Source: Rhodoligotrophos appendicifer
Lineage (GTDB): Bacteria > Pseudomonadota > Alphaproteobacteria > Rhizobiales > Im1
Reading direction: 5' to 3'
Assembly (NCBI RefSeq): GCF_007474605.1
Contig: NZ_VHKL01000001.1
Span: forward strand, 248,001 to 312,000
Length of the DNA: 64,000 bases
The translations under genes were made by a program, and so were the position numbers. Under the pieces are notes generated by a model, which saw nothing but the letters and a program-made list of their open reading frames with translations, did not search any database and was not told where the DNA came from. The first letter of the stretch is position 1, and every line of letters begins with the position of its first letter. Positions 10,389 through 24,921 of the stretch are shown piece by piece.

Positions 10389-10967
10389 ATGGATACCCCC
10401 ATTCAAATCTCGTTCAAAAACCTCGACAGCTCAGAGGCACTTGAGAACCACATCCGCGAGAAGGCTTCGAAACTGGAGCGATTTCACCACAAGATCGTCT
10501 CCTGCAGAGTGGTAGTACACACACCGCACCGAAGCGCCGGTCAGGGAAAACCTCCCATGGGACTGTCGTTGGAAGTCGAGGTTCCGGGGCGCACCTTGGT
10601 GGCGAAGAGCGGCGACGGGATCTACGACACCAAGGAAGGCAGCATCACCACGGTCGTGAACAAGGTGTTCGAGGCGATGGAGCGCCAGCTGAACGAAGTC
10701 TCCGACATCCGCAGCCAGCAGGTGAAGACCCATGAAGGCGCGGGCGACACGGGTAAGGTCGCACGTCTCTTCCCGGAGCAGAACTACGGCTTCATCGAGG
10801 CTCTGAACAGCCCGGACCTTTATTTCACGCGGAATGCCGTCATTGACGACGCCTTCGACGATCTGAAGGTCGGTATGATGGTGAGGTTGACCCGGGCCAC
10901 TACGGAGGGCCCCATGGGTCCTCAGGCCAGCTCGGTCCGCCGCTTGTCCGGCGAACAGGTGGGCTGA
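10389..10967 (+). CDS. HPF/RaiA ribosome-associated domain fused to cold-shock domain
   Basis: A 192-residue two-domain protein. Residues 1 to about 105 match the HPF/RaiA hibernation factor domain (MDTPIQISFKNLDSSEALE, RASKLERF-like helix, then a basic strand region). Residues about 120-185 match a cold-shock domain, with GKVARLFPEQNYGFIEA, DLYFTRNAV and LKVGMMVRL recalling RNP motifs. HPF blocks the decoding site of idle ribosomes; a cold-shock domain binds single-stranded RNA. Such fusions exist in proteobacteria, but here it may be the only HPF near rpoN, whose usual hpf neighbour is absent. GGAG lies 12 bases upstream of the ATG. The role of the added domain is inference. Confidence 0.88.
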   Translation: MDTPIQISFKNLDSSEALENHIREKASKLERFHHKIVSCRVVVHTPHRSAGQGKPPMGLSLEVEVPGRTLVAKSGDGIYDTKEGSITTVVNKVFEAMERQLNEVSDIRSQQVKTHEGAGDTGKVARLFPEQNYGFIEALNSPDLYFTRNAVIDDAFDDLKVGMMVRLTRATTEGPMGPQASSVRRLSGEQVG

Positions 10968-11026: not shown

Positions 11027-13120
11027 CTATCCGCGGTATTTTACGACCAGCAAGGTGACGTCGTCGGACTGGTCGTGTCCGCTCTCGAACGTCTTCACGG
11101 CTTCAGCCGTGGCGCGCGCGAGCGGGGCTGGTTCGTCCTCGAGATGGCTCCGCAGGGTTTCCTCCAGCCGCAGCTCTCCGAACTGATCCCCCGCGTCGTT
11201 GAACGCTTCGGTGACCCCGTCGGTATAGAGGACCAGGCTTTCTCCGGGCTCGAGCACCAGCCGCCGGGTGGTGAAGTCGGTGTCGCTCACGATCGCCACC
11301 GCGATGTCATCGCTGGGATCAAGGGCCACGACGCCCTTGGCGCCGACACGATAAGGGGGATTATGCCCCGCATTCACATATTCCACCGCCCCGGTTGCGG
11401 GGTCCAACACGCAGAAGAACAGCGTCACGAACATCATCTGATCATTGCCGGCGGTGAGCAGCTCGTTGAGCTGACGGACGCAGACGGCGGGATCGTTTTC
11501 GAAGAGGGCGATGGCCTTCAGCAGGGTCCGCGCGATGGCCATGAAGAAGGCCGCGGGCACGCCCTTCCCTGACACATCCGCGATGAGGAAGGCGAAGCGC
11601 CCGTCATTCTGGTCGAAGAAGTCGTAGAAATCGCCGCCGACTTCGCGCGCGGACTCCATCAGCCCGAACACGGAAAACCGCTCGCGATCGGGAAAGTCGA
11701 TGGGAAGAACGGACCGCTGCAGATCCCGTGCGATCGCCAGCTCCTGTTGCAGGCTGGCGAGCTGCGTCTCGCGAACCAGCGCTTCTCGCAGCCGCGTCAC
11801 CAGTTCCGAGAGCCGGCGGTGCTGATCGACGACTCGCCCCGACATTTGCTGGAGGACCGCAGCCAGGGGGCCGAGTTGATCGTCTTCGCGAATGAGCCTC
11901 GCCATCGATTGCGATTGATCGCTGGCACCCTCCGTCTTGGGCAGTGCGCCGCTGGTGGCGGCGACGATCCGTCGGAGGTCCGTCAGCACTTCTTCGCGTG
12001 CGCCCGGTTCCAGAGTGCTGGCGAGATTTTCCATCTGACGCCGGACGAAACGCTCTTGCCGTCGCCGCTGGAGCTCGCGTTGCCGCCGGGTGTCGTTGAG
12101 GGCGATGAGGTTCTGACGGAGTCCCTGAATGGCCGTGGCGATGTCGCCGATCTCATCGTCGCTTTCCTTGGTGAGATTGGCCGAAGTGTCGCCCCTGGAG
12201 AGAGCACCCAGCACCGACACGGCCCGATCGAGCGGCCGGAAGCTCAGCCGAAGATAAAAATATAGGCCGGCCAGCAGGACAACCAGCATGATGATGGCCG
12301 CCCCGACCGTCAGCATTGTCAGCCGTCGCAGGGCAGTGAGGCTCTCAGTGGCATCTTGCACCGTGACCAGCAGACCTGCGGTCCCTGCCGAAAGATCGTC
12401 CAAGGGGATGGCTGTAACCGCAAAGAGTTTACCGTCCAGCTCCGCCTGCGTGACCGTAGCGACCCGCTGCGGCAGATCCAGGTGCAGTTCCCCCCACAAC
12501 CCGTCGGCCGTCCCCTCCACCAGCCTGCCGCGGGTGCTGAGCAGGAAGACATCGGCATTCATGGCGGCCGCAAACCGCTTCAGGGCCGCATTTGCGGAGC
12601 CCGCAAGCGCCAGAACTAAGCTTTGTTCAGCGACAGGATAACGACGCGCCGCAATGACACGGAACCGGTCGGAAGCAATCTGGCGGATGCCCTGCGGCAT
12701 CGCCCCCGCCTGCACCGCCCTGATGGTACTGACGTCCAGGAGCCGCGGCGGTTCGGCTGCCGTTGAACTGGCGAAGACGATCTGTCCGTTCCCGTCAAGG
12801 ATTTGCAGATCGGTCAGCTCGGAGGACGCAAAGCGGGGAATGGTCCAGGCGGTCGCCAAACTGCGCATCTCGGAGACATTGCGAGCGGCGACCGCTCGCT
12901 GCAGATCGGGATCGGCAATGATCTGATCGGCCAGCTCGATCAGCGGCTGTATGTGATCGTCCAGGATCTCACGCCACAGAGCGGCCTGCCCCGTTGTGCC
13001 GATGCGCGTATAGGGAACCTCCGCGAGCCGCTCCCGCTGCAAGCCGGCCAGGACGAGCCCGCCGAATGCGATTGCGAACACGACCGTGACAAGGAGAGTG
13101 ACGCGGGTACGCAGGAGCAT
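11027..13120 (-). CDS. Membrane SpoIIE/PP2C-type protein phosphatase with HAMP domain
   Basis: A 697-residue protein: transmembrane helix at about 8-28, periplasmic sensor region to about 265, second helix about 270-293, HAMP region about 295-350, coiled-coil rich linker to about 460, then a PP2C/SpoIIE domain. Phosphatase metal motifs are intact: EVGGDFYDFF, LIADVSGKGVPAA, YVNAGHNPP, LYTDGVTEAF and SDDVTLLVV. In partner-switching systems (RsbU, SpoIIE) such enzymes dephosphorylate a STAS protein; a STAS gene lies at 21226-21561. The gene starts 2 bp after the sensor-MFS gene, making it the third gene of a three-gene operon. Ligand unknown. Confidence 0.92.
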   Translation of the reverse strand: MLLRTRVTLLVTVVFAIAFGGLVLAGLQRERLAEVPYTRIGTTGQAALWREILDDHIQPLIELADQIIADPDLQRAVAARNVSEMRSLATAWTIPRFASSELTDLQILDGNGQIVFASSTAAEPPRLLDVSTIRAVQAGAMPQGIRQIASDRFRVIAARRYPVAEQSLVLALAGSANAALKRFAAAMNADVFLLSTRGRLVEGTADGLWGELHLDLPQRVATVTQAELDGKLFAVTAIPLDDLSAGTAGLLVTVQDATESLTALRRLTMLTVGAAIIMLVVLLAGLYFYLRLSFRPLDRAVSVLGALSRGDTSANLTKESDDEIGDIATAIQGLRQNLIALNDTRRQRELQRRRQERFVRRQMENLASTLEPGAREEVLTDLRRIVAATSGALPKTEGASDQSQSMARLIREDDQLGPLAAVLQQMSGRVVDQHRRLSELVTRLREALVRETQLASLQQELAIARDLQRSVLPIDFPDRERFSVFGLMESAREVGGDFYDFFDQNDGRFAFLIADVSGKGVPAAFFMAIARTLLKAIALFENDPAVCVRQLNELLTAGNDQMMFVTLFFCVLDPATGAVEYVNAGHNPPYRVGAKGVVALDPSDDIAVAIVSDTDFTTRRLVLEPGESLVLYTDGVTEAFNDAGDQFGELRLEETLRSHLEDEPAPLARATAEAVKTFESGHDQSDDVTLLVVKYRG

Positions 13121-13122
13121 GT

Positions 13123-14808
13123 TCAGTCAGCCCCCGCCGCTGGCCGCGCTCTGGAAGTGAAGTGGCTTGCCATCGCCAGGACCAGACCCACGGCCACCGG
13201 CGCGATCAAGTCATTGACAGTGTAGCCGCCGGAGAGGCCGAGCACCACGATGCCTGCGATCATCCCCGCGGGCAGTCCGCCAAACGCAACACCCCTTTCC
13301 GTGCGCCCACCGAAAATGGCCGCCAGGCAGACCAGGCCAGTCAGCGCAGTCGCAAGGCCTCCGGTGAGATAATCGTCATAGCCCGGACCGCTTGGGATCC
13401 AGACGAGAATGACTGCACCGCCGATTGCGCCGAGGGAGGCCGCAGCCAGCCAGCCCGAGAGCTCGGCTCCATGCGGATGAGGAGCGTCAACGCCAGGGCG
13501 GTTCCGCAGCAGCGGCATCAGTGCGGCGGAGAGAACGAGACCGCAGCCGATAGCGAGGAACCCCATTCGTCGGCCCACCGCCTCTCCGACAAGCCCTCCG
13601 AGCAGGGGCCCGGCGCATAAAGCGGCAAACACGGTGAGCCTGACGATAGGCTTGGAGAGACTGGCGCTGTTCAGCGCTGCAGCAAGGAACAGCCCCAGCC
13701 CTGCGCCGGCACAGGCGCGCAACAGCACGAACAGCAAATAGGAATGGGACCAGGCAACGAACGCGGTGGCGATGCCCGCCAGGACCAATCCGGCCCACCC
13801 ACAAGCGTGTCGCACATGGCCCGGGAGACGGCTGGCACCTAGCGCCGCGATCGACACGGCTGCGATCTCCGCCATGAGGACGACGCCAGGCCACCACGCC
13901 GCCGACACGGCTGACCATTCCCGATCGATGGCATAATTCGCGATGAAGGGGGCGGCCGCCATGTAGCAACCGACCACGATCGAAGCCGGCCATGCGGCAA
14001 TCTTGGCCCTGGCCACGAAGGACGACGGCCCCGCGCCTGCCGCAGTCTGCTCGTTGACCTCAGCGAGAAGGGGATCCAGCCTTTCCTTGAGGCTTCCGTC
14101 GAAATCGATGGCCTGGACCGTGGCAGCGGCATCCTCTAGACGCCGCTGGGCCTCTCGGACCGGTTCGATGCAGCGATCCAACCCGCGCAGGGCAGCGACG
14201 ACGATGCCGCGGCCGATGGGGGGTGGTGCGGTCTTGAAATGCCCGTCTCGCGCCAGGGCAAGGGTATGGGCAAGCTGACGCTCTGCAGTTCTGAGATGGT
14301 AGACGAGAAACAGGTAGGACCCGAGCCCTGCCAGCACGCCGCAGAGAAGGGCTGCGACGGCGACGGCGGCTTCAAGCCGGCTAACCGCGCCGGCAACCAG
14401 GGGGGATGCCACCTGAAGAATCAAGCTTCCTGCCGGCTGCGCCGCGACCTGAAGGGGAAAATTGAGCCCCTCGATGTCCCCACCCGTGGAAAATAAGATC
14501 TTTCCTGCCGCATCGACGATGGCCAAACCCTCAACCTGCGGCGCCCCGTCAGAGACGTGCTTGAGATACTCGGTAACGCCGTTCAACCGGTCGAGGGGAA
14601 TTCCGTAGCCCAGCGCCTTCTCGATCTGGCTGGTGACGGCCCGGCCAACCGCCTCGGCGCCTCCCTGAGTCGCCTCCGAGAGCACCGGAAGGCTCTCTCG
14701 CTCGGCTCCCTGCAACATGGCATAGCCGCCTGCACCGACGCAGAGCGCGACGATCACAGCGAGCACGCCCGCCAACAGCCAGGATGGGAGCGCCTCAAGC
14801 CGCCGCAT
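13123..14808 (-). CDS. Sensor domain fused to degenerate MFS-like membrane domain
   Basis: A 561-residue protein. Helix 1 (about 10-33), an extracytoplasmic region carrying YGIPL (68-72) and AIVDAAGKILFST (96-108), helix 2 (about 145-172), a HAMP-like cytoplasmic linker, then about ten hydrophobic segments resembling a major facilitator domain (VLLRACAGAGLGLFLAAAL, LLGGLVGEAVGRRMGF). Its paralogue at 16349-18343 has the same plan with better MFS motifs. I infer a receptor rather than a transporter, because the charged MFS loop motif is weak. ATG 14808 overlaps the end of the preceding gene by 14 bp, implying coupling. Family not recognised. Confidence 0.72.
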   Translation of the reverse strand: MRRLEALPSWLLAGVLAVIVALCVGAGGYAMLQGAERESLPVLSEATQGGAEAVGRAVTSQIEKALGYGIPLDRLNGVTEYLKHVSDGAPQVEGLAIVDAAGKILFSTGGDIEGLNFPLQVAAQPAGSLILQVASPLVAGAVSRLEAAVAVAALLCGVLAGLGSYLFLVYHLRTAERQLAHTLALARDGHFKTAPPPIGRGIVVAALRGLDRCIEPVREAQRRLEDAAATVQAIDFDGSLKERLDPLLAEVNEQTAAGAGPSSFVARAKIAAWPASIVVGCYMAAAPFIANYAIDREWSAVSAAWWPGVVLMAEIAAVSIAALGASRLPGHVRHACGWAGLVLAGIATAFVAWSHSYLLFVLLRACAGAGLGLFLAAALNSASLSKPIVRLTVFAALCAGPLLGGLVGEAVGRRMGFLAIGCGLVLSAALMPLLRNRPGVDAPHPHGAELSGWLAAASLGAIGGAVILVWIPSGPGYDDYLTGGLATALTGLVCLAAIFGGRTERGVAFGGLPAGMIAGIVVLGLSGGYTVNDLIAPVAVGLVLAMASHFTSRARPAAGAD

Positions 14809-15568
14809 CTTGCTCCTTGTCCTCGTCCAGCGCCAAGATCGCGGAAACCGTCCGGTCCAGCTCGACCACCCGTGTGGCGACCGCCGCGCGCGCCTCGTCG
14901 GCAAGAAGGCCAAGGCCGCTGGTTGCGGCAACCGGCGACGTGCTGCTGAGATGAGACCGAACGTCGCGTAGCGGCGCCGTCGCCGCTCTTAACAACGCCC
15001 ATGCGGAAAAGATGACGACGAGAACGGCACAAGGCAGCGCAATGGCCATCCGGCTCGTGAGGATCGATCCCACCGCGTCGGCGTGAAGCTCCCGAGAACT
15101 TCCCGCAAGGGTAATGGCCACATGTCCGACCGGCTCTCCGAAATCGTTGCGGATCACCTCGCCGACGACGATGTCCCCAAACTCCTCGACCCGCCAGCGA
15201 CCGTAACCGAGGCTCCGCCGAATTGCCTCGTTCCAGCTTTCGCGCACCGGTTCTCCGATGCTGCCCCTGTCGGTGTTGAACTGTGAGGTGCCATTGGGCG
15301 AGAAGATCTCGACCGCGAGGATTTCGCTGTCTGCAGCTTGCGCTTGTTCGATCAGATCCTGGGCGATTCGGATTTCCGGCAGCGCCAGTCCGAGATTGAC
15401 GTTTGCCTCGATCGAATCACGAAGCTGTGTGAGCACGAATTTGAGGTTGGATTCGGCCACTTGCACTTGCGAGCGGTCCAGGCTGCCATAGATCAGGAAT
15501 GCGCAGAGACACAGTCCTGCGGCGGTTAAAAGCGCCAGGGCACAGATGAGGCGAGTGACGGGAGCCAT
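14795..15568 (-). CDS. Small membrane sensor protein (paralogue A)
   Basis: A 257-residue protein with two transmembrane helices (about 8-27 and 172-194) bracketing an extracytoplasmic domain, and a short cytoplasmic tail rich in charged residues. The loop contains LGLALPEI (59-66), AVEIFSPNGTSQFNT (85-99) and IRNDFGEPVGHVAI (139-152), each matching the divergent small sensor at 15715-16347. The topology and two-motif pattern suggest a Cache-like ligand-binding domain, which is inference. It has no kinase, cyclase or phosphatase output, so it probably signals through the adjacent sensor-MFS or phosphatase. It is the first gene of the minus-strand operon. Confidence 0.7.
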   Translation of the reverse strand: MAPVTRLICALALLTAAGLCLCAFLIYGSLDRSQVQVAESNLKFVLTQLRDSIEANVNLGLALPEIRIAQDLIEQAQAADSEILAVEIFSPNGTSQFNTDRGSIGEPVRESWNEAIRRSLGYGRWRVEEFGDIVVGEVIRNDFGEPVGHVAITLAGSSRELHADAVGSILTSRMAIALPCAVLVVIFSAWALLRAATAPLRDVRSHLSSTSPVAATSGLGLLADEARAAVATRVVELDRTVSAILALDEDKEQDAAA

Positions 15569-15714
15569 CGTTACGCGATCGGCCTTATGGAAAAGACCGT
15601 TTGACGGTAACGGATGAGTTCCCCAATGTCACCGCTGGACAGTATTTCGCCATAATCTGGTCTCGCGGGCCACGCTTTATCTGCGAGATCATGCGACAGT
15701 AAGCGCTAGATCCC
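15569..15714. promoter_or_regulatory. Divergent promoter region of the two sensor operons
   Basis: A 146-bp region separates the divergent start codons of the two small sensor genes and must hold both promoters unless they start further upstream. It contains ACCGT-TTG-ACGGT (15596-15608), a small inverted repeat that could be an operator. I could not assign -35/-10 elements with confidence. Confidence 0.45.
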
Positions 15715-16347
15715 ATGCTCCGCCTCGCTTTTCGAACGTTGCCGCTTTTCGCCGTCATCGTTGGCTTTGCCATAGCTCTCGGCGCGTACATGAATTTCAG
15801 CGGCGTTCGCGGTGCCTATCTCGAACTGATTCGCTCCCGCATGGAGGTCGTGGCCAAGGAATTGGATCGGGATGTGGATTCTGCGGTATCATTGGGTATC
15901 CCGCTTTCCGAGCAGATCACCCTCCCCGCCCTGTTGGCGCGCCAAGCCAGTGCGGACCCTCTGATCCTGTCCATCGATGTGGCCTCGCCTGAAGGCAAGA
16001 CACTCTTCAGCAGCAAGCCGGACCGTGACGGAGCAACCGAGCCGTCCGATCATGACCCCGAGGCGCATGTTCTCAGTCATCGCATTTTGAACGATTTCGG
16101 TGCTTCGGTCGGCACGGTGGTGATCCGCTACAGCCGGGCGGAGACCTCGGCCAAGATCAGTGCGCTGGGCAAGGAGATCATCGGTCGTGCAGTGCCGGCA
16201 GGAGTGTTGGCCGTCTTGGCAGGATGCTTGGCGGCATTCCTCGTTCTGACCCGGTTGCACAACAAGGCCCGCACCGCGTCGCACCAGAATTCAAGCGACG
16301 CCATCGCTCGAGCCGAGTCCGAGCTTCACACGGTGGAGGCGAGCTGA
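15715..16347 (+). CDS. Small membrane sensor protein (paralogue B)
   Basis: A 210-residue protein with helices at about 8-27 and 158-179 around an extracytoplasmic domain. It carries LGIPLSEQ (60-67), SIDVASPEGKTLFSS (86-100) and ILNDFGASVGTVVI (124-137), closely parallel to the paralogue on the other strand. The cytoplasmic tail is only about 30 residues, so no output domain exists. It is followed after a single base by the sensor-MFS gene, so the two products likely work together. Function not established; a ligand-binding subunit is the simplest reading. Confidence 0.7.
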   Translation: MLRLAFRTLPLFAVIVGFAIALGAYMNFSGVRGAYLELIRSRMEVVAKELDRDVDSAVSLGIPLSEQITLPALLARQASADPLILSIDVASPEGKTLFSSKPDRDGATEPSDHDPEAHVLSHRILNDFGASVGTVVIRYSRAETSAKISALGKEIIGRAVPAGVLAVLAGCLAAFLVLTRLHNKARTASHQNSSDAIARAESELHTVEAS

Positions 16348-16348
16348 G

Positions 16349-18343
16349 ATGCGCAGCCTTCAGATCCGCCTCTCCGTAGCCCTCGTCGCCATCCTCATAG
16401 CGGCGCTTGCCTTCTTGTCCGTTCAGACCGCAAACCGCGCTGAAGGACTTCTTCTGCCTGAGGTGGAACGTAAGGCGGAGACTGTGGCGGGCTCCATCAC
16501 GAGTCTCATCGATCGCGCGCTGGAAGTCGGCATACCCTTCTCCGACATTCAGGGCCTGGAGCCCTATCTGTCGCGAGTGCTGGCGGCGAACCCGGACTTC
16601 CAGTCGATCGGCATCGAGGATCTCGGGGGACGTCAGCTCTTTTCCGTTGGCACAAGATCCGGGGCAGGCGAGCAACCTGGGGTGCGCCTTCCCATAGGAG
16701 CGCAAGGCGCGCCGGTCGCCTATGTCTCCGTCGGGCTCGACCCGGCGTTTGCTCAGGAGATCGTCTACAAGCTGTGGATCGACCTCGCCATCGTCATGGT
16801 GGTCACGGCACTGGTGGCTCTGGAGCTTGTCTATATCAGCTTCGGTGCCGGCCTCTACGGCATCATCGAAGGCGTGGAGGCGAGGCTCCACAGCCTCGAC
16901 CACGAGGATCTGCGCAAGCACCCCCCCGTCAACAATGATTCCGAGTTCGGACGCTTGGCGAATTTGATCGATGGACGCCTTGCCGCCGTGAACCAGCGAT
17001 ACATGGCCCTGCGCGATTCCCTGGCGACGAGCATCGGCGCCGCCCGTAGGAACGCGCTCGAGCTCGTCCGCAAGCGATTCAAGCTGGGAGACAATCCCCT
17101 GACGGCACCATTGTCCGTCGTTGCGATCCGCGCCCCGCTCTTCGTTTTTATGTTTGCCGAAGAGCTCACCCGCCCGTTTCTGCCGATCTACATCCAGCGC
17201 ATTGCCACGCCCATACCGGGCCTTTCACCCCAGTTGGTGATCAGCCTGCCCATGGTGGTCTTCCTGGCCATCGTCGCCCTGACGCAACCAGTGCTCGGCG
17301 GGTTGACGGAGCGCTTCGGCCGGCGCCGCTCGCTGATTTGCGGAGCGGCATTCGGCGTCGCCGGCTACTGTGCCTCCGCCTTTGCCTACGACATCCTGGG
17401 GCTTGCGCTGGCGCGGGGATTGGCCGCCATCGGCTTCGCCCTGGTCTTTGTCAGCGCCCAAGGTTATGTCATCGACAGCACCAGTACGAGCCAGCGGGCT
17501 CGCGGCATGGCCGTGTTCATCGGTGCCATCCTGGTCGCCGGGCTCTGCGGCCCCCCCATCGGCGGCATCATCGCCGATCGCCTGGGCATCGAGGCCGCCT
17601 TCCTCATAGCGGCTTGCATGGCCGGCGCCAGCCTGCTTCTGGCATTGATCTGCATTCCGGAAATTCCCGGCCATAAGCCCTCGGGTCCACCGATCCGCTG
17701 GCGGGATTTCACGGCCACCCTGAGCTCACCCTCTTTGGCCGTCCTGCTCTTCTGCTGCGCCATGCCTGCCAAGATCATCCTCGTGGCCTTCTGCTTCTTT
17801 CTTATTCCCTTGCATATGGAGGCACTGGGTCAGGATCAGGCCGCCATCGGCCGGATGCTGATGATCTATCCCCTGATCATGGTCATGCTGGTGCCGACAT
17901 TCGCCTCCCTCGCCGACAAATGGAACGCCCGCCTGGCCTTCGTCGCCGGCGGCGGCCTCATCGCCGGGCTGGGGAGCTTGGTGGTCTTGATCGATGCCAC
18001 CAATGTTTTCGTGCTGGGGACGATGCTGCTGTTCCTCGGTATCGGTCAGGCCATCAGCATTGCCCCACAATCTGCCCTTGTCGGTGAATTTGGCAGAGAC
18101 ACGAGCCGTCCCGTCGGCGATGGAGCGCTTTACGGGATATTCCGGCTGGTGGAGCGGACCGGCAACGCGCTGGGCCCGGTGATCGCCGGTTTCCTCCTGG
18201 GGCTCTACGGCTTCACGGTCACGGTCGTCCTGATCGGTGCCCTGATGGCGGTCGGCTCGATTTGCTTTGGCGCCACCACATCCGGCTTCCGCAGTCGGAA
18301 ACAAAAGCCAGTATCCCAACCCATGGGGAGCGAACCTGCATGA
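16349..18343 (+). CDS. Sensor domain fused to MFS domain
   Basis: A 664-residue protein: helix 1 (about 5-25), extracytoplasmic domain with VGIPFSD (60-66) and GIEDLGGRQLFS (88-99), helix 2 (about 143-168), a HAMP-like linker (170-240), then a complete-looking 12-helix MFS domain from about 255. MFS features include LTERFGRRRSL (loop 2-3 motif) and GPPIGGIIADRLG. Whether it transports, or uses an MFS fold as a receptor, cannot be decided by sequence. The stop codon overlaps the start of the substrate-binding protein gene (ATGA, 18340-18343), linking transporter-like and binding proteins. The name of this architecture is not known to me. Confidence 0.8.
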   Translation: MRSLQIRLSVALVAILIAALAFLSVQTANRAEGLLLPEVERKAETVAGSITSLIDRALEVGIPFSDIQGLEPYLSRVLAANPDFQSIGIEDLGGRQLFSVGTRSGAGEQPGVRLPIGAQGAPVAYVSVGLDPAFAQEIVYKLWIDLAIVMVVTALVALELVYISFGAGLYGIIEGVEARLHSLDHEDLRKHPPVNNDSEFGRLANLIDGRLAAVNQRYMALRDSLATSIGAARRNALELVRKRFKLGDNPLTAPLSVVAIRAPLFVFMFAEELTRPFLPIYIQRIATPIPGLSPQLVISLPMVVFLAIVALTQPVLGGLTERFGRRRSLICGAAFGVAGYCASAFAYDILGLALARGLAAIGFALVFVSAQGYVIDSTSTSQRARGMAVFIGAILVAGLCGPPIGGIIADRLGIEAAFLIAACMAGASLLLALICIPEIPGHKPSGPPIRWRDFTATLSSPSLAVLLFCCAMPAKIILVAFCFFLIPLHMEALGQDQAAIGRMLMIYPLIMVMLVPTFASLADKWNARLAFVAGGGLIAGLGSLVVLIDATNVFVLGTMLLFLGIGQAISIAPQSALVGEFGRDTSRPVGDGALYGIFRLVERTGNALGPVIAGFLLGLYGFTVTVVLIGALMAVGSICFGATTSGFRSRKQKPVSQPMGSEPA

Positions 18344-19350
18344 AACGCCGGCACTTCCTCGGACTGAGCCTTGCGGCTTCAGCATCGATTCTCACAGCGT
18401 CTGCCCACGCGCAAACGACATCAGCCGCGCCCAAGCGCATTTACCGCATCACCTATCGCGGCCGAACCGCAGTCGAGGAAGGCTTCGACGACTACCTCGC
18501 CGCCAATGGTGCCAAGGTGGAGTTCATCGAACGCGACGCGCAGCGCGACCCCTCGAAGATCCCCGGCTTCGTGCAGGAGATCCATGAGATGAAGCCGGAC
18601 CTGGTTTACACCTGGGGCACGCCGGTAACCCTGGGAACCGCGGGACGCTACGATGCTGCGGAAAAGGCGAAATACATCACCGAGATCCCGATCGTCTTCG
18701 CCCTGGTCTCGGCGCCCGTGCAGGCGGGCATCGTCAAGAGCACGGAGCATCCGGGGCGCAACGTGACCGGCGCAGTCCACGTCGTCCCCACCGAAACCCA
18801 GCTGCGAGCGATGGAATCTTATCGCCCGTTCAAGAAGCTCGGCGTTCTCTACAGCCTCAACGAGCAGAATTCCGTCTCCATTGTGGAGGATCTCAAGAAA
18901 CTTCAGGGGAAGCTCGGCTTCGAGCTTATCGAGCGCACCTTCCGAATGGTCGACGGCAAGCCGGTGGCCGACGGCATTCCCGAGCTGATCGCGGAGATCA
19001 AGGCCGCCGGTGCCGATTGGCTTTATCTCCTCCCCGATACCTTCCTGGGCACTCAATATTCTGTGGTGGCGCCGGCGGCCCTCAGCGAGAAACTGCCGAC
19101 CTTCGGCGCGGCGGAACTGGCAATTCGTGAAGGGGGCGCCCTCGTCGCCCTCGTGGCCCGCTATTATTCCGTGGGCCAACTCGCCGCGTCCAAGGCTCTG
19201 AAAATCCTGGAACAAGGCATTCCACCCGAAGACATTCCGATAGAAACGCTCAAGCGATTTTCGTTGATCATTAACATGCCCGTTGCAAAACAGTTGGAAC
19301 TCTATCCCCCAATTGAGATGCTGAATTATGCAGAGGTCCTGACGAGCTGA
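18340..19350 (+). CDS. ABC-type substrate-binding protein, TrpX-like, orphan
   Basis: A 336-residue periplasmic binding protein of the ABC_sub_bind (COG2984/TrpX-like) family. The N-terminus KRRHFLGLSLAASAS fits a Tat-type or twin-arginine-like signal peptide with cleavage near AHAQ. The body has the usual two-lobe pattern, with YRITYRGRTAVEEGF at the start and VVPTETQLRAMESYRP in the middle. Relatives bind amino acids such as tryptophan or tyrosine. No permease or ATPase gene is nearby, so it more likely presents a ligand to the sensor-MFS protein than feeds an importer (inference). GGGGAG lies upstream and the ATG overlaps the preceding stop. Confidence 0.87.
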   Translation: MKRRHFLGLSLAASASILTASAHAQTTSAAPKRIYRITYRGRTAVEEGFDDYLAANGAKVEFIERDAQRDPSKIPGFVQEIHEMKPDLVYTWGTPVTLGTAGRYDAAEKAKYITEIPIVFALVSAPVQAGIVKSTEHPGRNVTGAVHVVPTETQLRAMESYRPFKKLGVLYSLNEQNSVSIVEDLKKLQGKLGFELIERTFRMVDGKPVADGIPELIAEIKAAGADWLYLLPDTFLGTQYSVVAPAALSEKLPTFGAAELAIREGGALVALVARYYSVGQLAASKALKILEQGIPPEDIPIETLKRFSLIINMPVAKQLELYPPIEMLNYAEVLTS

Positions 19351-19399
19351 TCTGGTACGGCTCGGGGACCATAATCCAGGGGAAGTCCGTGGGGGCGGC

Positions 19400-20080
19400 G
19401 TGACAGTGACTTCGACGGCGGCAGAGACGGCAGCCATGAATTGGCGCGTCCTCGGAATGGAGGACGTCGAGGCAATCTACCGGCTTCACATCGCCGCCAC
19501 GGATGCTGTCGGCCGGCCGGATTTTATCCGTCCGGAGACCCTTGAGTTCTTCGTGAAAATGCTCTCCGGCGCAGGCATCATCGTCGGCGTTCACGACCTT
19601 CATGGCCTTCTGGCCTATGGAGTTCTGCAGTGGGACCTGTCGATCGAGGAGGATCCGCGCCCTGCTCTGCAGCTCACGGAAGCGGATTCCCTTGCCAAAC
19701 TGGCTGGCGCCTCCGTCAGGCCGGGAACTTGGGGCAGTGGCTTGCATCGCCGAATGATCGACTGGCGCCGCGAGGAAGCCCGAGCCCGCGGCTTTCGGCA
19801 TCTCTATGCGACCTCGGCACCTGGAAATGAGCGAAGCTGGACCAATCTCATCGAGGAAGGCCTGCAGATCCGCAGTATCCGGCAGCAATATGGGGGCCAT
19901 TTACGCTACGTTATGGCTACGGATCTGGAAGACACTCGCCCATGGTCCTGCCAAGTGTCATGGTGCGACGTGAAAGATATTGCCGGCCAGAACACGATGT
20001 TGGCACAGGGCCTCGTCGGCTTCGCCTGGGAGAATCGCGAGGGCCGACGGATGATTTGCTATGGGCAGCGCCAGCCATGA
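19400..20080 (+). CDS. GNAT family N-acetyltransferase
   Basis: A 226-residue protein with a GNAT acyl-CoA-binding core, visible as ASVRPGTWGSGLHRRMIDW (motif A, about residues 103-121) followed by the beta5/alpha4 segment HLYATSAPGNERSWTN. The substrate is unknown; GNAT enzymes acetylate amino groups of amino acids, drugs or proteins. The C-terminal 70 residues extend past the fold and are unusual. GTG 19400 is the likely start. The stop overlaps the racemase start as ATGA, so expression of the two is coupled within the sensor operon. Confidence 0.8.
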   Translation: MTVTSTAAETAAMNWRVLGMEDVEAIYRLHIAATDAVGRPDFIRPETLEFFVKMLSGAGIIVGVHDLHGLLAYGVLQWDLSIEEDPRPALQLTEADSLAKLAGASVRPGTWGSGLHRRMIDWRREEARARGFRHLYATSAPGNERSWTNLIEEGLQIRSIRQQYGGHLRYVMATDLEDTRPWSCQVSWCDVKDIAGQNTMLAQGLVGFAWENREGRRMICYGQRQP

Positions 20081-21204
20081 TCATGGGGCGACCGCCCATC
20101 CCCGGGACCCACCAGCCACTCAGCCACGCCACCCTTGAGGTAAACCTCGGCGCCGTGGCTGAAAACTACAAGGAAATGCGCCGGCGCTATGAGGGCACGG
20201 TACTGTCGGCCGTCGTCAAGAACGATGGCTACGGCTTGGGCCTGGAGCCGATCGTCCGTCGCCTCTCTGCGGAAGGCTGCACGCATTTCTGGGTGCTCGA
20301 TCTAGCCGAAGGTCTTCGCGCCCGGGCGAGTGCGTCAGACGAAGCCGAGATTTGTGCTCTCCACGGCCTTCAGAACACAGCACCGGAGGAATTCGATCGA
20401 CAGCGGGTTGTACCGGTCCTCGCGACGTTGGAGGAAGTCGCAGCAACCGCAGCAGCGGCCCGCCGCCTTGGCCGGCCTATCGTGGTGTCGGTTCAGCTGG
20501 ATACAGGCCTGGGCCGCCTCGGCCTCTGCGAAGCCGAGGTCGCGATCTTGGCAGACCGCAGAGAGTGGCTGGACGTGCTGGAAATCAGGACCTGGGTCTC
20601 CCACCTCGCCTCCTTCGACGTCCCCGACGCGCCGTCCAACGAGGAGCAGCGCGAGAAGTTGGTGAATTGGGTCGGCCGCCTGAAACCTGCCCCGATCAGC
20701 CTGGCCTCCTCCGCGGGGATCTATATGGGCGCGCATTGGCACTTCGACGTCGCCCGCGTGGGAAGTGCTCTCTATGGCGTTCAGACCTCCGCCATTTGGC
20801 AGGACGGACTGCGCCCTTGTTACACTCTCCGAGCGCCCCTGCTGAGGGTCACGGAGATGCCGGAAGGGGCGTGTGTCGGTTATCGCCGGATGACGAGGCT
20901 CGGCAGAAGGTCCCTGATCGCAACGGCTCAGATCGGGTATGGCAACGGCCTTCCCCAGGCTCTGGCGAAATATGCCAAGGTCGACATTGCCGGACACCAA
21001 GTGCCCATAGTCGGCGGAATCGCCATGAATCTAGCAATGATCGATGTGACGGACGTACCGCGCGGCCTTGTGGACACCGCAACCGTTGCAACCTTTCTCG
21101 ATGAGCGTCACACTGTCGATGATCTGGCGAGACAGATGGACTGCGCCCCCAATGCCATCCTCACCCAGGTCGGCGCCTGCACGCCGCGGATCTATCGAGA
21201 TTGA
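20077..21204 (+). CDS. Alanine racemase-like PLP protein in signalling operon
   Basis: A 375-residue fold-type III PLP enzyme. The PLP lysine is K48 in SAVVKNDGYGLG (canonical AVVKADAYGHG), and the C-terminal barrel and beta domain carry QLDTGLGRLGL, SLASSAGIYMG and QIGYGNGLP. Alanine racemases make D-alanine for peptidoglycan. This copy sits at the end of a sensor operon rather than with dnaB or cell-wall genes, so it may be a dedicated racemase of another amino acid or a sensory derivative. N-terminal residues 1-16 are an extra extension. ATGA overlap with the GNAT gene gives the start. Confidence 0.85.
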   Translation: MIMGRPPIPGTHQPLSHATLEVNLGAVAENYKEMRRRYEGTVLSAVVKNDGYGLGLEPIVRRLSAEGCTHFWVLDLAEGLRARASASDEAEICALHGLQNTAPEEFDRQRVVPVLATLEEVAATAAAARRLGRPIVVSVQLDTGLGRLGLCEAEVAILADRREWLDVLEIRTWVSHLASFDVPDAPSNEEQREKLVNWVGRLKPAPISLASSAGIYMGAHWHFDVARVGSALYGVQTSAIWQDGLRPCYTLRAPLLRVTEMPEGACVGYRRMTRLGRRSLIATAQIGYGNGLPQALAKYAKVDIAGHQVPIVGGIAMNLAMIDVTDVPRGLVDTATVATFLDERHTVDDLARQMDCAPNAILTQVGACTPRIYRD

Positions 21205-21225
21205 CCGGCGTCCGACCCGCCCCTG

Positions 21226-21561
21226 TCATGACCGCAGGGCAGCTATGGCACCATCCGTGGTGGGGTGGATCTGGAACAGCTTCGCAAACCCGCTGATCGT
21301 GAAGACTTCGTTCACTGGGCCGGTCATTCCCGATAGCGCCAGAGGGCGGCCCCGGGCCTTACTCTGCTTTGCCGCCATCAACAGCACCCGCAGCCCGGCG
21401 CTGGAAATATAGGTCAGTTGCGAGAAATCGACGACGATGCTGCTCTCGGCATCGAAAGCCGGCAACAAGACGGCCTCCAGGTCGCGGGCCGTATTGCTGT
21501 CCACTCGGCCGATCGGCGCAATGACGCTGATCCCTTCGCGCATCTCGCGGCTAATTTCCAT
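21226..21561 (-). CDS. STAS-domain anti-anti-sigma factor
   Basis: A 111-residue single STAS domain. The phosphorylatable serine lies in the conserved segment LTYISSAGLRVLL (about residues 49-61), as in SpoIIAA/RsbV. Such proteins bind a kinase/anti-sigma when unphosphorylated and are switched off by phosphorylation. AGGAGG lies four bases upstream of the start codon, a strong site. The gene is 9 bp after the HATPase fusion gene on the same strand, and the SpoIIE-type phosphatase is 8 kb away in the same island. It is convergent with the racemase-like gene. Confidence 0.93.
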   Translation of the reverse strand: MEISREMREGISVIAPIGRVDSNTARDLEAVLLPAFDAESSIVVDFSQLTYISSAGLRVLLMAAKQSKARGRPLALSGMTGPVNEVFTISGFAKLFQIHPTTDGAIAALRS

Positions 21562-21570
21562 TTACGCCTC

Positions 21571-23235
21571 CTATTGGCCGCTTGTCGCAGCTTTTTCTAC
21601 GAGTTTGGTGAGCATGAGTTCGTTGCGGCCGTCTCGCCGCACATAGTCGATGCCGTCCATCATTTCCCGGACCAGGAATACGCCAAGCCCGCCGATCTCT
21701 CTGTCGTCTACATCGGCATCGAGGTCCGGCACCGGCGCTTCACGTGGATCGAACGGCGCAGCATCGTCGCTGAGCCGGACGACGACTTCAGGTCCATGTC
21801 GCTCGATGCGGAGATCGATCACATGCTCTTGTTCGTCCTTAAAACCATGGGTGATCGTGTTGGTCAGCAACTCGTCGAGCGACAGATTGAGGGCATGAGC
21901 AACGTCCGGACCAAACCCGTTCGCCTCGCAAAATGCTTCGACCGCCTCGGCGATCCGCTCGATCTCGGAAAGCGAATTGGCAACGCTGAGATGCAGTGCG
22001 GGGACAACCGGTTCTTCGGACACTGGAGGCCTTTTCCCATCCCTGATCGGATCGACCGTGAGGAGATCGATCACCCGATAGATCGTCTCGTGCCCGAACC
22101 GCTTCGGCAATGCCACCATATCATGATACTCGACACGATAGCGCGGCGAATAGGGAGCTCCCGTCATCGCCGCTTCATAGGCTCTTTCGTCCATCTCCGC
22201 CCTGAGCAAAGCGACGAAATTTTGCGAGGCGAAGACCTCTCCCGGGACGGCGATCGGCTCGATGCGCGCGGCCCGATTGACGTGGTGGCCGAAGATCATG
22301 CTCCGGCCGGTCAGGGGATGGAGACCGACGAAGACGGGACCGGCATGAAGGGCGATCCGAAACCGGGGCGAACGCTCCAGCCCATAGGTCTTCGGATCGA
22401 TCTCGCGGACGGCCCGGGTCAATGCGGAGGCATAATCGGCGAGATCATGTGCTGTCTCTCCGGCCGCATGCACGGCATCACCCCACGTATTGATCAGGAT
22501 CGGCGCCGGCGCCCGCAGATCCACCTCCTGCTGCGCCTCGCTCAAGAGGTCGAACAGCAACGGCAATTCCTCGTCGCCGAAATTGGTGAAGGTCGCAATG
22601 TCGGCGAACAAGATGGCCCGGATGGCCCGGGGGCTCAGCCCCACTTCGAGGCCGAATCGCTGCTGGCTCGACGAAGACGATAGTGGTGTGCCGCGCAGGT
22701 CGTCCAGATCGATGATCTGCAGCCGCTCCAGCTCCGGCCAGTGATCCATGAAATCTGCGGGGCTGCCGGGTTCGGGCGGGGCGCTGGGACTCCACAGCAG
22801 CAGCAGGGTGACCTGCGTATCGAGCGCCTCCGCCTGGAGCCGGGCGATGCCCTGAAGGACCTGATTGTTGAAACGGATCAGCAATTCGTCGCCCAGCAGG
22901 CGTTCCTCGCAGCTGATGTTGACGCTCGCAGCGCGATGGCAGAGCTGCTCGAATCGATCGATCCACTCGCGGCCCCCAGGCGCCACATACTGGCTCACGA
23001 AATCGTCGCGCTCGCAGGGGATGTGGATGTGGAGCTTGCCGCCCCGGCGGACGACCTCTTCGCCGAAAATGATGTCTCCTCCGGCGGAGGCGGAGGCGTA
23101 GCCGATGAGATCGCCGGGTCCATCAAGCTTGGTGCGCAAGGCCGACCGCACATCGCCCACCAGCGATTCCGGAAAGACTTCGCCGTCTGGATCGAGCCGC
23201 TGGCCTGCGAAAAGAATGATCTTCGGTGCTGTCAT
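21571..23235 (-). CDS. SLOG-like/class III cyclase/RsbW-type HATPase fusion
   Basis: A 554-residue three-part protein. Residues 1 to about 160 resemble a SLOG/Rossmann nucleotide-binding domain (SAGGDIIFGEE at 50-60). Residues about 200-390 are a class III nucleotide cyclase catalytic domain with both metal aspartates (D212 in LFADIATF, D253 in TWGDAVH) and the GHHVNRAARIE segment (316-326). Residues about 420-554 are an RsbW-type HATPase with N-box ELLTNTITHGF and G2-like GGLGVFLV. I predict a kinase/anti-sigma able to phosphorylate the adjacent STAS protein and possibly make a cyclic nucleotide. An alternative ATG at 23286 would add 17 residues; neither start has a strong site. Confidence 0.85.
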   Translation of the reverse strand: MTAPKIILFAGQRLDPDGEVFPESLVGDVRSALRTKLDGPGDLIGYASASAGGDIIFGEEVVRRGGKLHIHIPCERDDFVSQYVAPGGREWIDRFEQLCHRAASVNISCEERLLGDELLIRFNNQVLQGIARLQAEALDTQVTLLLLWSPSAPPEPGSPADFMDHWPELERLQIIDLDDLRGTPLSSSSSQQRFGLEVGLSPRAIRAILFADIATFTNFGDEELPLLFDLLSEAQQEVDLRAPAPILINTWGDAVHAAGETAHDLADYASALTRAVREIDPKTYGLERSPRFRIALHAGPVFVGLHPLTGRSMIFGHHVNRAARIEPIAVPGEVFASQNFVALLRAEMDERAYEAAMTGAPYSPRYRVEYHDMVALPKRFGHETIYRVIDLLTVDPIRDGKRPPVSEEPVVPALHLSVANSLSEIERIAEAVEAFCEANGFGPDVAHALNLSLDELLTNTITHGFKDEQEHVIDLRIERHGPEVVVRLSDDAAPFDPREAPVPDLDADVDDREIGGLGVFLVREMMDGIDYVRRDGRNELMLTKLVEKAATSGQ

Positions 23236-23348
23236 GGGCGACGCCGTCCGTGGGCTGGATCGGGAAAGAGCGAGGTGGTGCGCCATCTTGGCGCGATTTT
23301 TCTTAACGGTCAGCGTATAACCACCGCCCAGCAGCAGGGGAGACAGGT

Positions 23349-24452
23349 GTGACTGCGAGGCTGAAGGCTATCTACCATGTCCGGGGCGAGGCGGGGAGCA
23401 TCGAAGCGCGAGCCCAGGCGATCGCCGTCGAGCAAAGCGTCGAAATGCCCGTCGATGCCATCGACGATGCGTTCGTTCTGTCCGAGATCGTCGGTCGGGT
23501 GGAGTCCATAGCGGAGATCTCGCCGGGAACATTCGAGGTGGAGGTAGGCCTGAGCGCCGAGACCATCTCCGACGATCCCGGCCAGCTCCTGAATATGCTC
23601 TTTGGCAACACTTCCCTGCATGACGACGTGACCTTGCACGACATGGTGCTTCCACCGGAGGTGATTGCCTGCTTTGGCGGCCCCCATCAGGGATTGGACG
23701 GCCTGCGCGCTCGGGTCGGCGCACGGGATCGCGCCCTCACCTGCTCGGCGCTGAAGCCCCAGGGCCTGCCGTCACCTGACTTGGCCGACCTCGCGCATAG
23801 ACTGGCGTTGGGCGGGCTGGACTATATCAAGGATGACCATGGACTGGCCGATCAGGCCTTCAGTCCCTTTGCGCAAAGAGCCGCCGCCTGTGCCGAGGCA
23901 GTCCGCCTCGCATCGGAGTTCACCGGCCACCAGACCCGCTACATACCCAGTGTCAGTGGCCATCTGGATAGGATGCGGCAACAGCTCGAATTCGCTCGCG
24001 ACGTGGGCATCGACACGGTCATGATCGCTCCCATGATTGCAGGCTTTTCAAATGTCTGGCTCCTGGCGCGGGAGTATCCGGATGTGGCTTTCCTCGCCCA
24101 TCCCACCATGGGCGGAGCTTCTCGCATCGCGCCGACGCTGCTGATCAGCCGCCTCTTCCGCCTCGTGGGTGCCGACGGCGTAATCTTTCCCAACAGCGGC
24201 GGGCGGTTCGGCTATTCCCGCGAGACCTGCAAGGCCATCGCCGCCAGGGCACTTGAACCCTGGGAATCGTTGCAATCCAGCGCTCCAATTCCCGCCGGCG
24301 GCATGACGCTCGAACGTGTCCCGGAGATGCTCTCATTCTATGGCGCCGACGTCATCCTGCTGGTGGGCGGCGCGCTGTTGTCCGCCCGGAGCGAGCTGGT
24401 CGCTGCGACGAAGGCCTTCACAGCAGCGGTGGCCGATCATAATTATGCCTGA
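23349..24452 (+). CDS. RuBisCO-like protein (form IV)
   Basis: A 367-residue relative of the RuBisCO large subunit. TCSALKPQG matches the first active-site lysine segment, and GGLDYIKDDHGLAD (about residue 159) keeps the carbamylated lysine and metal aspartate but has His where RuBisCO has Glu. The loop 6 lysine region is absent, so it cannot fix CO2. Form IV proteins act as enolases or isomerases in methionine salvage. The cupin gene 22 bp downstream suggests the Rhodospirillum rubrum-type isomerisation of 5-methylthioribulose-1-phosphate. GTG start at 23349 with GGGGAG upstream. It is divergent from the cyclase fusion gene. Confidence 0.9.
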   Translation: MTARLKAIYHVRGEAGSIEARAQAIAVEQSVEMPVDAIDDAFVLSEIVGRVESIAEISPGTFEVEVGLSAETISDDPGQLLNMLFGNTSLHDDVTLHDMVLPPEVIACFGGPHQGLDGLRARVGARDRALTCSALKPQGLPSPDLADLAHRLALGGLDYIKDDHGLADQAFSPFAQRAAACAEAVRLASEFTGHQTRYIPSVSGHLDRMRQQLEFARDVGIDTVMIAPMIAGFSNVWLLAREYPDVAFLAHPTMGGASRIAPTLLISRLFRLVGADGVIFPNSGGRFGYSRETCKAIAARALEPWESLQSSAPIPAGGMTLERVPEMLSFYGADVILLVGGALLSARSELVAATKAFTAAVADHNYA

Positions 24453-24474
24453 ACCACGGAGCGTGAGCTGACAG

Positions 24475-24921
24475 ATGATGCACCGCAAGGCGCTGGACGG
24501 ATTCCGCTGGGATGGCATCGACCATCTTCCCTACAAGGAAGAGGGCTCGGTGCCGTTCAAGGATATTTCACGCCAGGTGCTGCTCTCGGCCCCTGAATTG
24601 AGCGGAGAGCTGCGCTATTTTGAAATGGGCCCTGAGGGTTTCTCAACCTTGGAGCGACACGAGCACATGCACGGTGTCATGATCTTCCGCGGCGAGGGTC
24701 ATTGCCTGGTGGGCGACGAGGTGCGCTTTGTCCGCGAACGCGACCTCGTGACCATCCCCCCCTGGACTTGGCATCAGTTTCGCGCGACCGCAGGGGTCGC
24801 GTTCGGCTTTCTGTGCATGGTCAACACCCAGAGAGATAAGCCGCAACTTCCGAGCGACACGGAGCTGGAAGAACTGCGGACCAATCCGACGGTTCGGGCC
24901 TTTCTGGACGGAGAAATCTAG
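24475..24921 (+). CDS. Cupin protein, candidate methylthioxylulose-5-phosphate methylsulfurylase
   Basis: A 148-residue single-cupin protein with metal-ligand histidines in LERHEHMHGVMIF and the second cupin motif PPWTWHQFRA. A late cysteine (FLCMVN) lies near the metal site. In R. rubrum a RuBisCO-like protein and a neighbouring cupin with a catalytic cysteine together turn methylthioribulose phosphate into deoxyxylulose phosphate and methanethiol. Gene pairing and the cysteine support that function here, but substrate is inferred. The gene is 22 bp after the RuBisCO-like gene. Its TAG stop shares the palindrome CTAG with the stop of the convergent gene. Confidence 0.75.
   Translation: MMHRKALDGFRWDGIDHLPYKEEGSVPFKDISRQVLLSAPELSGELRYFEMGPEGFSTLERHEHMHGVMIFRGEGHCLVGDEVRFVRERDLVTIPPWTWHQFRATAGVAFGFLCMVNTQRDKPQLPSDTELEELRTNPTVRAFLDGEI

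What the first reader, a model, noticed from the sequence alone, without database searches (positions are those of the whole stretch)
11027..23286. Candidate undescribed signalling island: duplicated sensor/sensor-MFS pairs wired to a partner-switching module
Seen: two divergent operons, each beginning with a small two-helix sensor and a sensor fused to an MFS-like domain; one ends in a SpoIIE/PP2C phosphatase, the other in an orphan substrate-binding protein, a GNAT and an alanine-racemase-like protein. Convergent to them are a STAS protein and a cyclase-HATPase fusion. Gene overlaps (14 bp, 2 bp, 1 bp, ATGA twice, 9 bp) indicate tight operons. Known: PP2C phosphatase, STAS and HATPase kinase form partner-switching circuits (RsbU/V/W, SpoIIE/AA/AB). 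Inference: the MFS-like proteins and the binding protein are the input. No sigma factor is encoded here, so the output is unknown.
Basis: partly seen in the sequence, partly recalled or inferred. Interest (0 to 1): 0.88.

Follow-up and report, generated by a model that had tools for sequence, protein, structure and literature searches.

The report
Receptor-switch module wired to nucleotide cyclase
Ten neighbouring genes look like one signalling device, in which membrane sensors and a binding protein control a phosphatase-kinase switch whose likely output is a cyclic-nucleotide-making enzyme, and related bacteria seem to attach versions of the same receptor to protein-injection machines instead.

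Summary
Phosphatase, STAS and HATPase motifs are intact, or nearly so, in the homologues aligned. Here it is fused to the HATPase kinase. Of 7 same-order genomes with the module and a stand-alone kinase, 6 have a PAS-cyclase gene beside the phosphatase gene; the seventh lies beside a T6SS. In two genomes a cyclase of that subfamily replaces the phosphatase domain on the same receptor chassis. More widely, the sensor-MFS-binding-protein unit lies near T6SS genes in 8 of 56 loci, T3SS genes in 3, hybrid kinases in 6. The own genome gave no T6SS-sheath or T3SS/flagellar-ATPase hit. The Bordetella btr locus lists the same kinds of parts. Verdict: new variant, a btr-like partner switch with a likely cyclase output. 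Ligand, nucleotide and all biochemistry are untested; the cyclase's substrate residues are atypical; 42 of 56 loci showed no cyclase match.

The parts
11027..13120 (-). PP2C: periplasmic sensor part (dCache-like by its relative L059), HAMP, linker, SpoIIE/PP2C phosphatase (697 aa)
   Evidence: dCache match in L059; alignment A2; metal-site Asp columns kept in 28-31 of 31
13123..14808 (-). MFS_A: sensor domain plus degenerate MFS-like membrane domain
   Evidence: 28 bits, below cut-off; no match to a simple motif-A pattern in 11 of 12 MFS_A proteins, L045 having one; 17 invariant columns in 10 loci against 107 for MFS_B
14795..15568 (-). sens_A: small two-helix membrane sensor (257 aa)
   Evidence: dCache only 13 bits, below cut-off
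15715..16347 (+). sens_B: small two-helix membrane sensor (210 aa), distantly similar to sens_A
   Evidence: no Pfam family
16349..18343 (+). MFS_B: sensor domain fused to a well-conserved MFS domain
   Evidence: motif-A pattern in 14 of 16 MFS_B proteins, the window's included
18340..19350 (+). SBP: PF04392 periplasmic binding protein with an RR-containing signal peptide; no ABC permease or ATPase in the island
19400..20080 (+). GNAT-like acetyltransferase
   Evidence: Pfam 0.017; homologue in the stretch held in 32 of 56 loci
20077..21204 (+). ALR: alanine-racemase-like PLP enzyme; active-site Lys and Tyr kept in 7 of 7
   Evidence: found in 11 of 56 loci
21226..21561 (-). STAS protein (anti-sigma-antagonist type), Ser-Ser kept
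   Evidence: 23 of 23
21571..23235 (-). Fusion: Rossmann-like N-terminus (low confidence), class III cyclase, RsbW-type HATPase

Best explanation
A btr-like partner switch with a nucleotide cyclase as output. Inferred order of events: (1) the periplasmic binding protein, possibly loaded with an aromatic or related amino acid, docks on the sensor/sensor-MFS receptors; (2) these change the HAMP-coupled PP2C phosphatase; (3) PP2C removes phosphate from the STAS protein, which the HATPase domain phosphorylates; (4) dephosphorylated STAS captures the HATPase domain; (5) because that domain is fused to the class III cyclase, capture changes cyclic-nucleotide synthesis, probably by relieving inhibition. 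Shown here: gene content, synteny, kept motifs, and the repeated pairing of this circuit with a cyclase. Inferred: every biochemical step, the ligand, the nucleotide and the sign of the effect.
For: Cyclase and kinase are fused in 5 loci (window, L035, L036, L039, L040). In 6 of the 7 same-order genomes with the module and a stand-alone kinase, a PAS-cyclase orthologue (53-61% identical to L044's) sits next to the PP2C gene; a length-fraction estimate on those six gives 0.19 expected, or 1.2e-3 if the two families count as two events (which did not include the seventh, G072). In L059 and L060 the PP2C catalytic domain is replaced by a cyclase; the L059 chassis matches the window's over 452 residues (34%, 8e-45), and the L059 cyclase's best hit in each of those six genomes is the module's PAS-cyclase. 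The window genus has no close PAS-cyclase (best 36%, cyclase domain only), as if another cyclase took its place. Of 28 module genomes, 13 have a cyclase fused or adjacent against 0.71 expected by chance placement. Motifs: HATPase 25 of 25, STAS 23 of 23, PP2C Asp columns 28-31 of 31.
Against: The seventh same-order module genome (G072, L051) has no cyclase match beside the module but a T6SS. The window cyclase keeps both metal Asp residues, but the substrate Lys position is Asn (Glu in L035/L058) and the Asp/Thr position is Met; L035/L058 also lacks the catalytic Asn, so activity and substrate are open. 42 of 56 module loci gave no match to two cyclase queries in the stretch held, among them L104-L106 and L109, the nearest loci outside the window's class on the SBP tree. 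STAS was not found in L044. AlphaFold models are poor (pLDDT 56 and 53). Related genomes are not independent. No biochemical data.
Confidence: 0.6

Rival explanations
1. The real output is in trans: STAS or the HATPase domain binds a sigma factor or other protein encoded elsewhere, and the cyclase domain is a degenerate regulatory or dimerisation part.
For: Classical RsbW/SpoIIAB kinases, which bind sigma factors, are the top structural matches of the kinase region; atypical cyclase pocket; most looser relatives have no cyclase match.
Against: The pairing with a cyclase is kept although the cyclase differs (PAS type with Lys and Thr, against the fused type), and the chassis-cyclase fusion joins the same receptor to a cyclase without STAS or HATPase matched nearby. 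No sigma factor family among the ten ORFs, which does not exclude one elsewhere.
Confidence: 0.21
2. Mainly a nutrient system: SBP, MFS_B, GNAT and ALR take up and modify an amino-acid-like compound, and the switch only adjusts this transport or catabolism.
For: MFS_B is well conserved and has a motif-A pattern in 14 of 16; GNAT in 32 of 56 and ALR in 11 of 56 loci; ALR active-site Lys and Tyr kept; metabolic genes on both sides in the window.
Against: GNAT and ALR are not always present; the flanking genes that were checked differ between loci; MFS_A is degenerate.
Confidence: 0.12
3. It controls a secretion machine, as btr does in Bordetella.
For: T3SS genes beside L062, L115 and L116; T6SS genes near eight loci.
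Against: No hit for the T6SS sheath family or the T3SS/flagellar ATPase C-terminal family in the window's own genome (33 contigs, rated 100% complete).
Confidence: 0.04

Closest known systems
Bordetella btr locus (BtrV, BtrW, Alr, BtrO, BtrU, BtrN; PMC7498569, passages and Table 3 seen)
   Same: Lists a STAS protein, serine kinase, alanine racemase, MFS transporter, SpoIIE phosphatase and an 'ABC transporter' protein in one locus; BtrO, BtrN and Alr are marked 'unknown' there.
   Different: btr serves a T3SS and has an ECF sigma factor (BtrS) and a secreted anti-sigma factor (BtrA); the window has a kinase-cyclase fusion, no T3SS ATPase hit in its genome and two sensor/MFS pairs. Sequence homology to the Btr proteins was not tested, nor whether BtrN is a binding protein.
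RsbU/RsbV/RsbW and SpoIIE/SpoIIAA/SpoIIAB
   Same: PP2C, STAS and HATPase with kept motifs; kinase region matches RsbW/SpoIIAB structures.
   Different: No sigma factor in the island; kinase fused to a cyclase; membrane receptor set.
Pseudomonas HsbR-HsbA-HsbD (PMC6482189, passages seen) and SiaABCD (recalled)
   Same: A STAS switch that acts on a nucleotide cyclase (a diguanylate cyclase).
   Different: There the cyclase is HsbD, a separate diguanylate cyclase bound by phosphorylated HsbA; here it is a class III cyclase domain fused to the kinase.
PF04392 binding proteins (3lkv, 6hni, 3lft; TrpX model NF041285)
   Same: Same family.
   Different: Well below the TrpX cut-off (113 against 390 bits); no ABC permease or ATPase among the island genes.

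Membership tests
RsbU/V/W-type partner switch | Phosphatase, STAS and kinase catalytic motifs intact | tested here: met
   (window and L035-L097): HATPase E/N and GGLG 25 of 25; STAS Ser-Ser 23 of 23; PP2C Asp columns 28-31 of 31; the window has all
RsbU/V/W-type partner switch | Cognate sigma factor in the locus | tested here: not met
   no sigma family among the ten ORFs
RsbU/V/W-type partner switch | Kinase phosphorylates STAS, phosphatase reverses it, partners exchange | not testable with these tools
   needs biochemistry
Bordetella btr-type locus | STAS, kinase, Alr, MFS, SpoIIE and ABC-type protein together (by kind of part) | tested here: met
   against the table in PMC7498569; a comparison of annotations, not of sequences
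Bordetella btr-type locus | Linked T3SS | tested here: not met
   no T3SS_ATPase_C match in the own genome; L062, L115 and L116 do have T3SS genes beside the module
Bordetella btr-type locus | Sequence homology to Btr proteins | not tested
   no Bordetella sequence was fetched
Class III nucleotide cyclase | PF00211 above cut-off, two metal-binding Asp | tested here: met
   38.9 bits against 21.9; both Asp in the alignment
Class III nucleotide cyclase | Canonical substrate residues (Lys plus Asp/Thr) and catalytic Asn/Arg | tested here: inconclusive
   Asn and Met at the substrate positions; Asn/Arg kept in the window, Asn lost in L035/L058; residue roles are recalled
c-di-GMP-coupled switches (Hsb, Sia) | GGDEF diguanylate cyclase | tested here: not met
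   no GGDEF family in the ten ORFs; SiaA model 80 bits against cut-off 700
Pycsar defence cyclase | PycC model match and effector gene | tested here: inconclusive
   fusion only 14.3 bits, E 0.0041; the PAS-cyclase of L044 matches PycC models up to 1.1e-22, which may reflect cyclase kinship only; effector not searched for
ABC importer | Permease and ATPase with the SBP | tested here: not met
   none among the island genes

The most novel reading that the evidence does not exclude
A modular envelope receptor (binding protein plus sensor-MFS proteins, with MFS_A turned from transporter into signal coupler) that bacteria plug into different outputs: class III cyclases, injectisomes, T6SS and hybrid kinases. 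In this genome the switch kinase and its target are one polypeptide, so partner switching would directly set the level of a second messenger, possibly a non-standard cyclic nucleotide.
Probability: 0.45. Interest if true: 0.82.

Novelty: new variant of a known kind. Interest (0 to 1): 0.72.

Why it matters
Partner switches are best known for sigma factors, with a few c-di-GMP cases. A kinase fused to a class III cyclase would tie this logic directly to cyclic-nucleotide signalling and make it testable with one protein pair. The comparison also suggests that the unexplained btrO, btrN and alr genes beside the Bordetella T3SS switch are parts of a widespread receptor, and that a related receptor sits beside some T6SS clusters. 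That gives a concrete hypothesis for what tells these injection machines to act.

Tried and rejected
Structure prediction of the fusion and of MFS_B gave poor models (pLDDT 56 and 53). Only the HATPase region gave a clear Foldseek match (RsbW/SpoIIAB); the N-terminus gave weak DprA/ShosA/LOG-like matches, so 'SLOG-like', a recalled name, is a guess.

Two apparent N-terminal extensions of HATPase ORFs (L061, L067) looked like other fusions but have no Pfam domain there and no significant match to the window fusion outside the kinase (one at E 0.021); treated as frame extensions of stand-alone kinases. Antisense clusters were taken for shadow ORFs of GC-rich DNA.

HATPase/STAS/PP2C sets without the sensor-MFS-SBP genes also occur in the order (L047-L050); they show that the switch alone is not specific to this module.

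Other neighbours were sought by Pfam beside L035, L037, L040-L042, L051, L052, L054, L055, L057, L061, L062, L064, L065, L067, L070, L077, L080, L088, L104-L107, L109 and L116 (one or more ORFs each): apart from cyclase, T6SS, T3SS and histidine kinase genes they differ (haem d1 genes, TetR, GPP34, LuxE, HD domain, thiolase and so on). A RuBisCO-like gene beside the fusion was also seen in one congener (L040); the one neighbour of the fusion checked in L035 gave no Pfam hit.

Counting notes. The 56 loci are those of 80 stretches considered that passed the MFS and SBP thresholds; the stretches come from the fusion, MFS_A, MFS_B, plasmid and alignment searches and are not a random sample. Left out beforehand: L053 (close kin of L052), L058 (same contig as L035), L098 (overlaps L057). 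The cyclase and T3SS labels were written by hand from earlier calls; the T6SS label rests on VgrG/VipB matches plus L051 and L064 by hand (L064: sheath gene about 20 kb away); L055 has ImpA-like matches but was labelled 'none'; the HK label rests on similarity to one Azospirillum hybrid kinase anywhere in the stretch. Several loci lie on short contigs. The 28 genomes are those that I named, not all module genomes, and one search's chance estimate for six same-order genomes left out G072. The genome scan returned four loci; the fourth (L038) matches only part of the MFS domain.

Literature: ten searches; one search listed 20 of 48 papers. Among the listings I recognised no paper on a class III cyclase under a STAS/HATPase switch, or on this MFS-SBP receptor with T6SS. 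I saw listings, abstract starts and found passages (PMC8256260, PMC11418112, PMC6482189, PMC4822843, PMC7498569), no whole paper. The library holds only openly licensed PMC papers.

Full report
WHAT IS THERE. The ORFs claimed are present. On the minus strand lie PP2C (11027-13120), MFS_A (13123-14808) and sens_A (14795-15568). Divergent from them, on the plus strand, are sens_B (15715-16347), MFS_B (16349-18343), SBP (18340-19350), GNAT (19400-20080) and ALR (20077-21204). Convergent to the latter, on the minus strand, are STAS (21226-21561) and a cyclase-HATPase fusion (21571-23235 from the likely start). Starts were refined from homologues and reading frames. Domain assignments are from Pfam and NCBIfam.

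CONSERVATION. A search of 150 genomes of the same order with MFS_A found 9 at 1e-10, the own one included. Reading 20 kb around the eight others showed the cassette in all eight: two congeners (L039, L040) with the same fusion, and six more distant genomes (L041-L046) with a stand-alone HATPase; STAS was not found in L044. The HATPase search added a ninth module genome of the order, G072 (L051), with one sensor/MFS pair and a T6SS. Two metagenome-derived alphaproteobacterial contigs (L035, L036) have the fusion too; L036 is cut before PP2C. ALR is present in 6 of the 11 loci of the window's group (window, L035, L036, L039-L046). Wider searches with the MFS_B alignment found 35 of 387 genomes of the class and 14 of 397 of the phylum at 1e-40, the own genome counted in each, some genomes shared between the two samples and some matching only the MFS part, and 19 of 299 genomes of one further family at 1e-20. 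Of 80 stretches considered, 56 have strong MFS and SBP matches; of these 49 have a sensor match, 32 PP2C, 25 STAS, 26 HATPase, 32 GNAT and 11 ALR, and 23 have PP2C, STAS and HATPase together. Single-pair forms exist (L037, L051, L061, L062, L066, L077), so duplication is not essential.

THE SWITCH. In alignments of the homologues found at 1e-5 in the window and L035-L097, the HATPase N-box E and N and the GGLG motif are kept in 25 of 25, the STAS Ser-Ser in 23 of 23, and the PP2C metal-site Asp columns in 28-31 of 31 (some of these PP2C proteins belong to other loci). Foldseek places the kinase region on RsbW and SpoIIAB complexes.

THE OUTPUT. Four observations point to a class III cyclase. 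First, it is fused to the kinase in five loci. Second, in 6 of the 7 same-order genomes with the module and a stand-alone kinase, a PAS-cyclase gene lies beside PP2C; a simple length-fraction estimate on these six gives 0.19 expected. In the alignment these cyclases carry Lys and Thr at the substrate positions (that this is the class IIIb adenylyl cyclase signature is recalled). Third, in L059 and L060 the chassis of the phosphatase ends in a cyclase instead of PP2C; for L059 the chassis match is 34% over 460 columns, 8e-45. No STAS or HATPase was matched in those two stretches. Fourth, the L059 cyclase's best hit in each of the six genomes above is the module's PAS-cyclase, at 2.8e-60 or better, while the next cyclases listed for those genomes are at 2.5e-43 or weaker. 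The window genus lacks a close PAS-cyclase and has the fused cyclase of another subfamily. L066 adds a CHASE2-cyclase next to the module. Of 28 module genomes, 13 have a cyclase fused or adjacent against 0.71 expected by chance placement; related genomes are not independent, so this is no p-value.

CAUTION ON THE CYCLASE. The fused cyclase has Asn and Met where canonical enzymes have Lys and Asp/Thr; L035 (row L058) has Glu and Thr and lacks the catalytic Asn. Proteins with the same N-terminal and cyclase domains but no HATPase match occur elsewhere in the order. The domain may make another nucleotide or have become regulatory. G072 has the module without a cyclase match beside it, and 42 of 56 loci gave none in the stretch held, judged by two cyclase queries.

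OTHER OUTPUTS. T6SS genes lie near eight loci (L051, L054, L065, L075, L076, L086, L087, and L064 at about 20 kb), T3SS genes beside three (L062, L115, L116) and hybrid kinases in the stretches of six (T3SS by Pfam and by similarity). Of the 12 of 28 genomes with a T6SS sheath gene, 5 have it within 21 kb of the module, 0.17 expected. A weaker SBP-MFS pair on a Nitratidesulfovibrio plasmid sits beside a T3SS chaperone gene. On the SBP tree the 30 loci with a labelled output need at least 8 changes of label, so outputs were probably exchanged repeatedly. In 26 of 56 loci no output was recognised. The own genome has no hit for the T6SS sheath or the T3SS/flagellar ATPase C-terminal family, so a cyclase fits better there.

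RECEPTOR. MFS_B is conserved, and a simple motif-A pattern is found in 14 of 16 MFS_B proteins (not in L051 and L054); it is absent from 11 of 12 MFS_A proteins (L045 has one match). In the same ten loci MFS_A has 17 invariant columns against 107 in MFS_B. I infer that MFS_B binds or moves a ligand and MFS_A couples signal to PP2C. Calling the sensor domains Cache-like rests on a sub-threshold match in sens_A and a match in L059. The SBP belongs to PF04392; that relatives bind Trp or Tyr is partly recalled.

COMPARISON. The Bordetella review lists in btr: BtrV STAS, BtrW kinase, Alr, BtrO MFS, BtrU SpoIIE, BtrN ABC transporter, with BtrO, BtrN and Alr of unknown function (PMC7498569, passages). 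This composition is so close that the window is best called btr-like; homology to the Bordetella proteins themselves was not tested. STAS control of a diguanylate cyclase is published for HsbA-HsbD (PMC6482189, passages). In the listings of my ten literature searches I recognised nothing on a class III cyclase under such a switch.

Noticed in passing
L051, L054, L065, L075, L076, L086, L087: Sensor-MFS-binding-protein genes sit inside or beside T6SS clusters in genomes of the window's class and of other proteobacteria; function unknown.
   Followed up: partly
L062:417-18862; L115; L116: Receptor and PP2C genes directly beside T3SS genes, resembling the btr arrangement (STAS matched in L115 only, HATPase in L062 and L115).
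   Followed up: partly
L099-L102: Sensor-MFS-SBP next to a divergent hybrid histidine kinase and response-regulator-like gene, with no PP2C match: perhaps a different output of the same receptor.
   Followed up: no
window 23349-24921: RuBisCO-like protein and cupin genes divergent from the cyclase-HATPase gene; a RuBisCO-like gene is also adjacent in L040.
   Followed up: partly
window 10389-10967: Ribosome hibernation (S30AE) domain with a weak, sub-threshold cold-shock domain match in one protein.
   Followed up: no
L006-L012, L021-L025: Proteins with the same N-terminal and atypical cyclase domains but no HATPase match; up to four places per genome.
   Followed up: no
L084, L095, L096: A more distant MFS (about 810 aa), SBP (PF04392 in L084, the others by similarity) and PP2C trio, possibly a sister system.
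   Followed up: no
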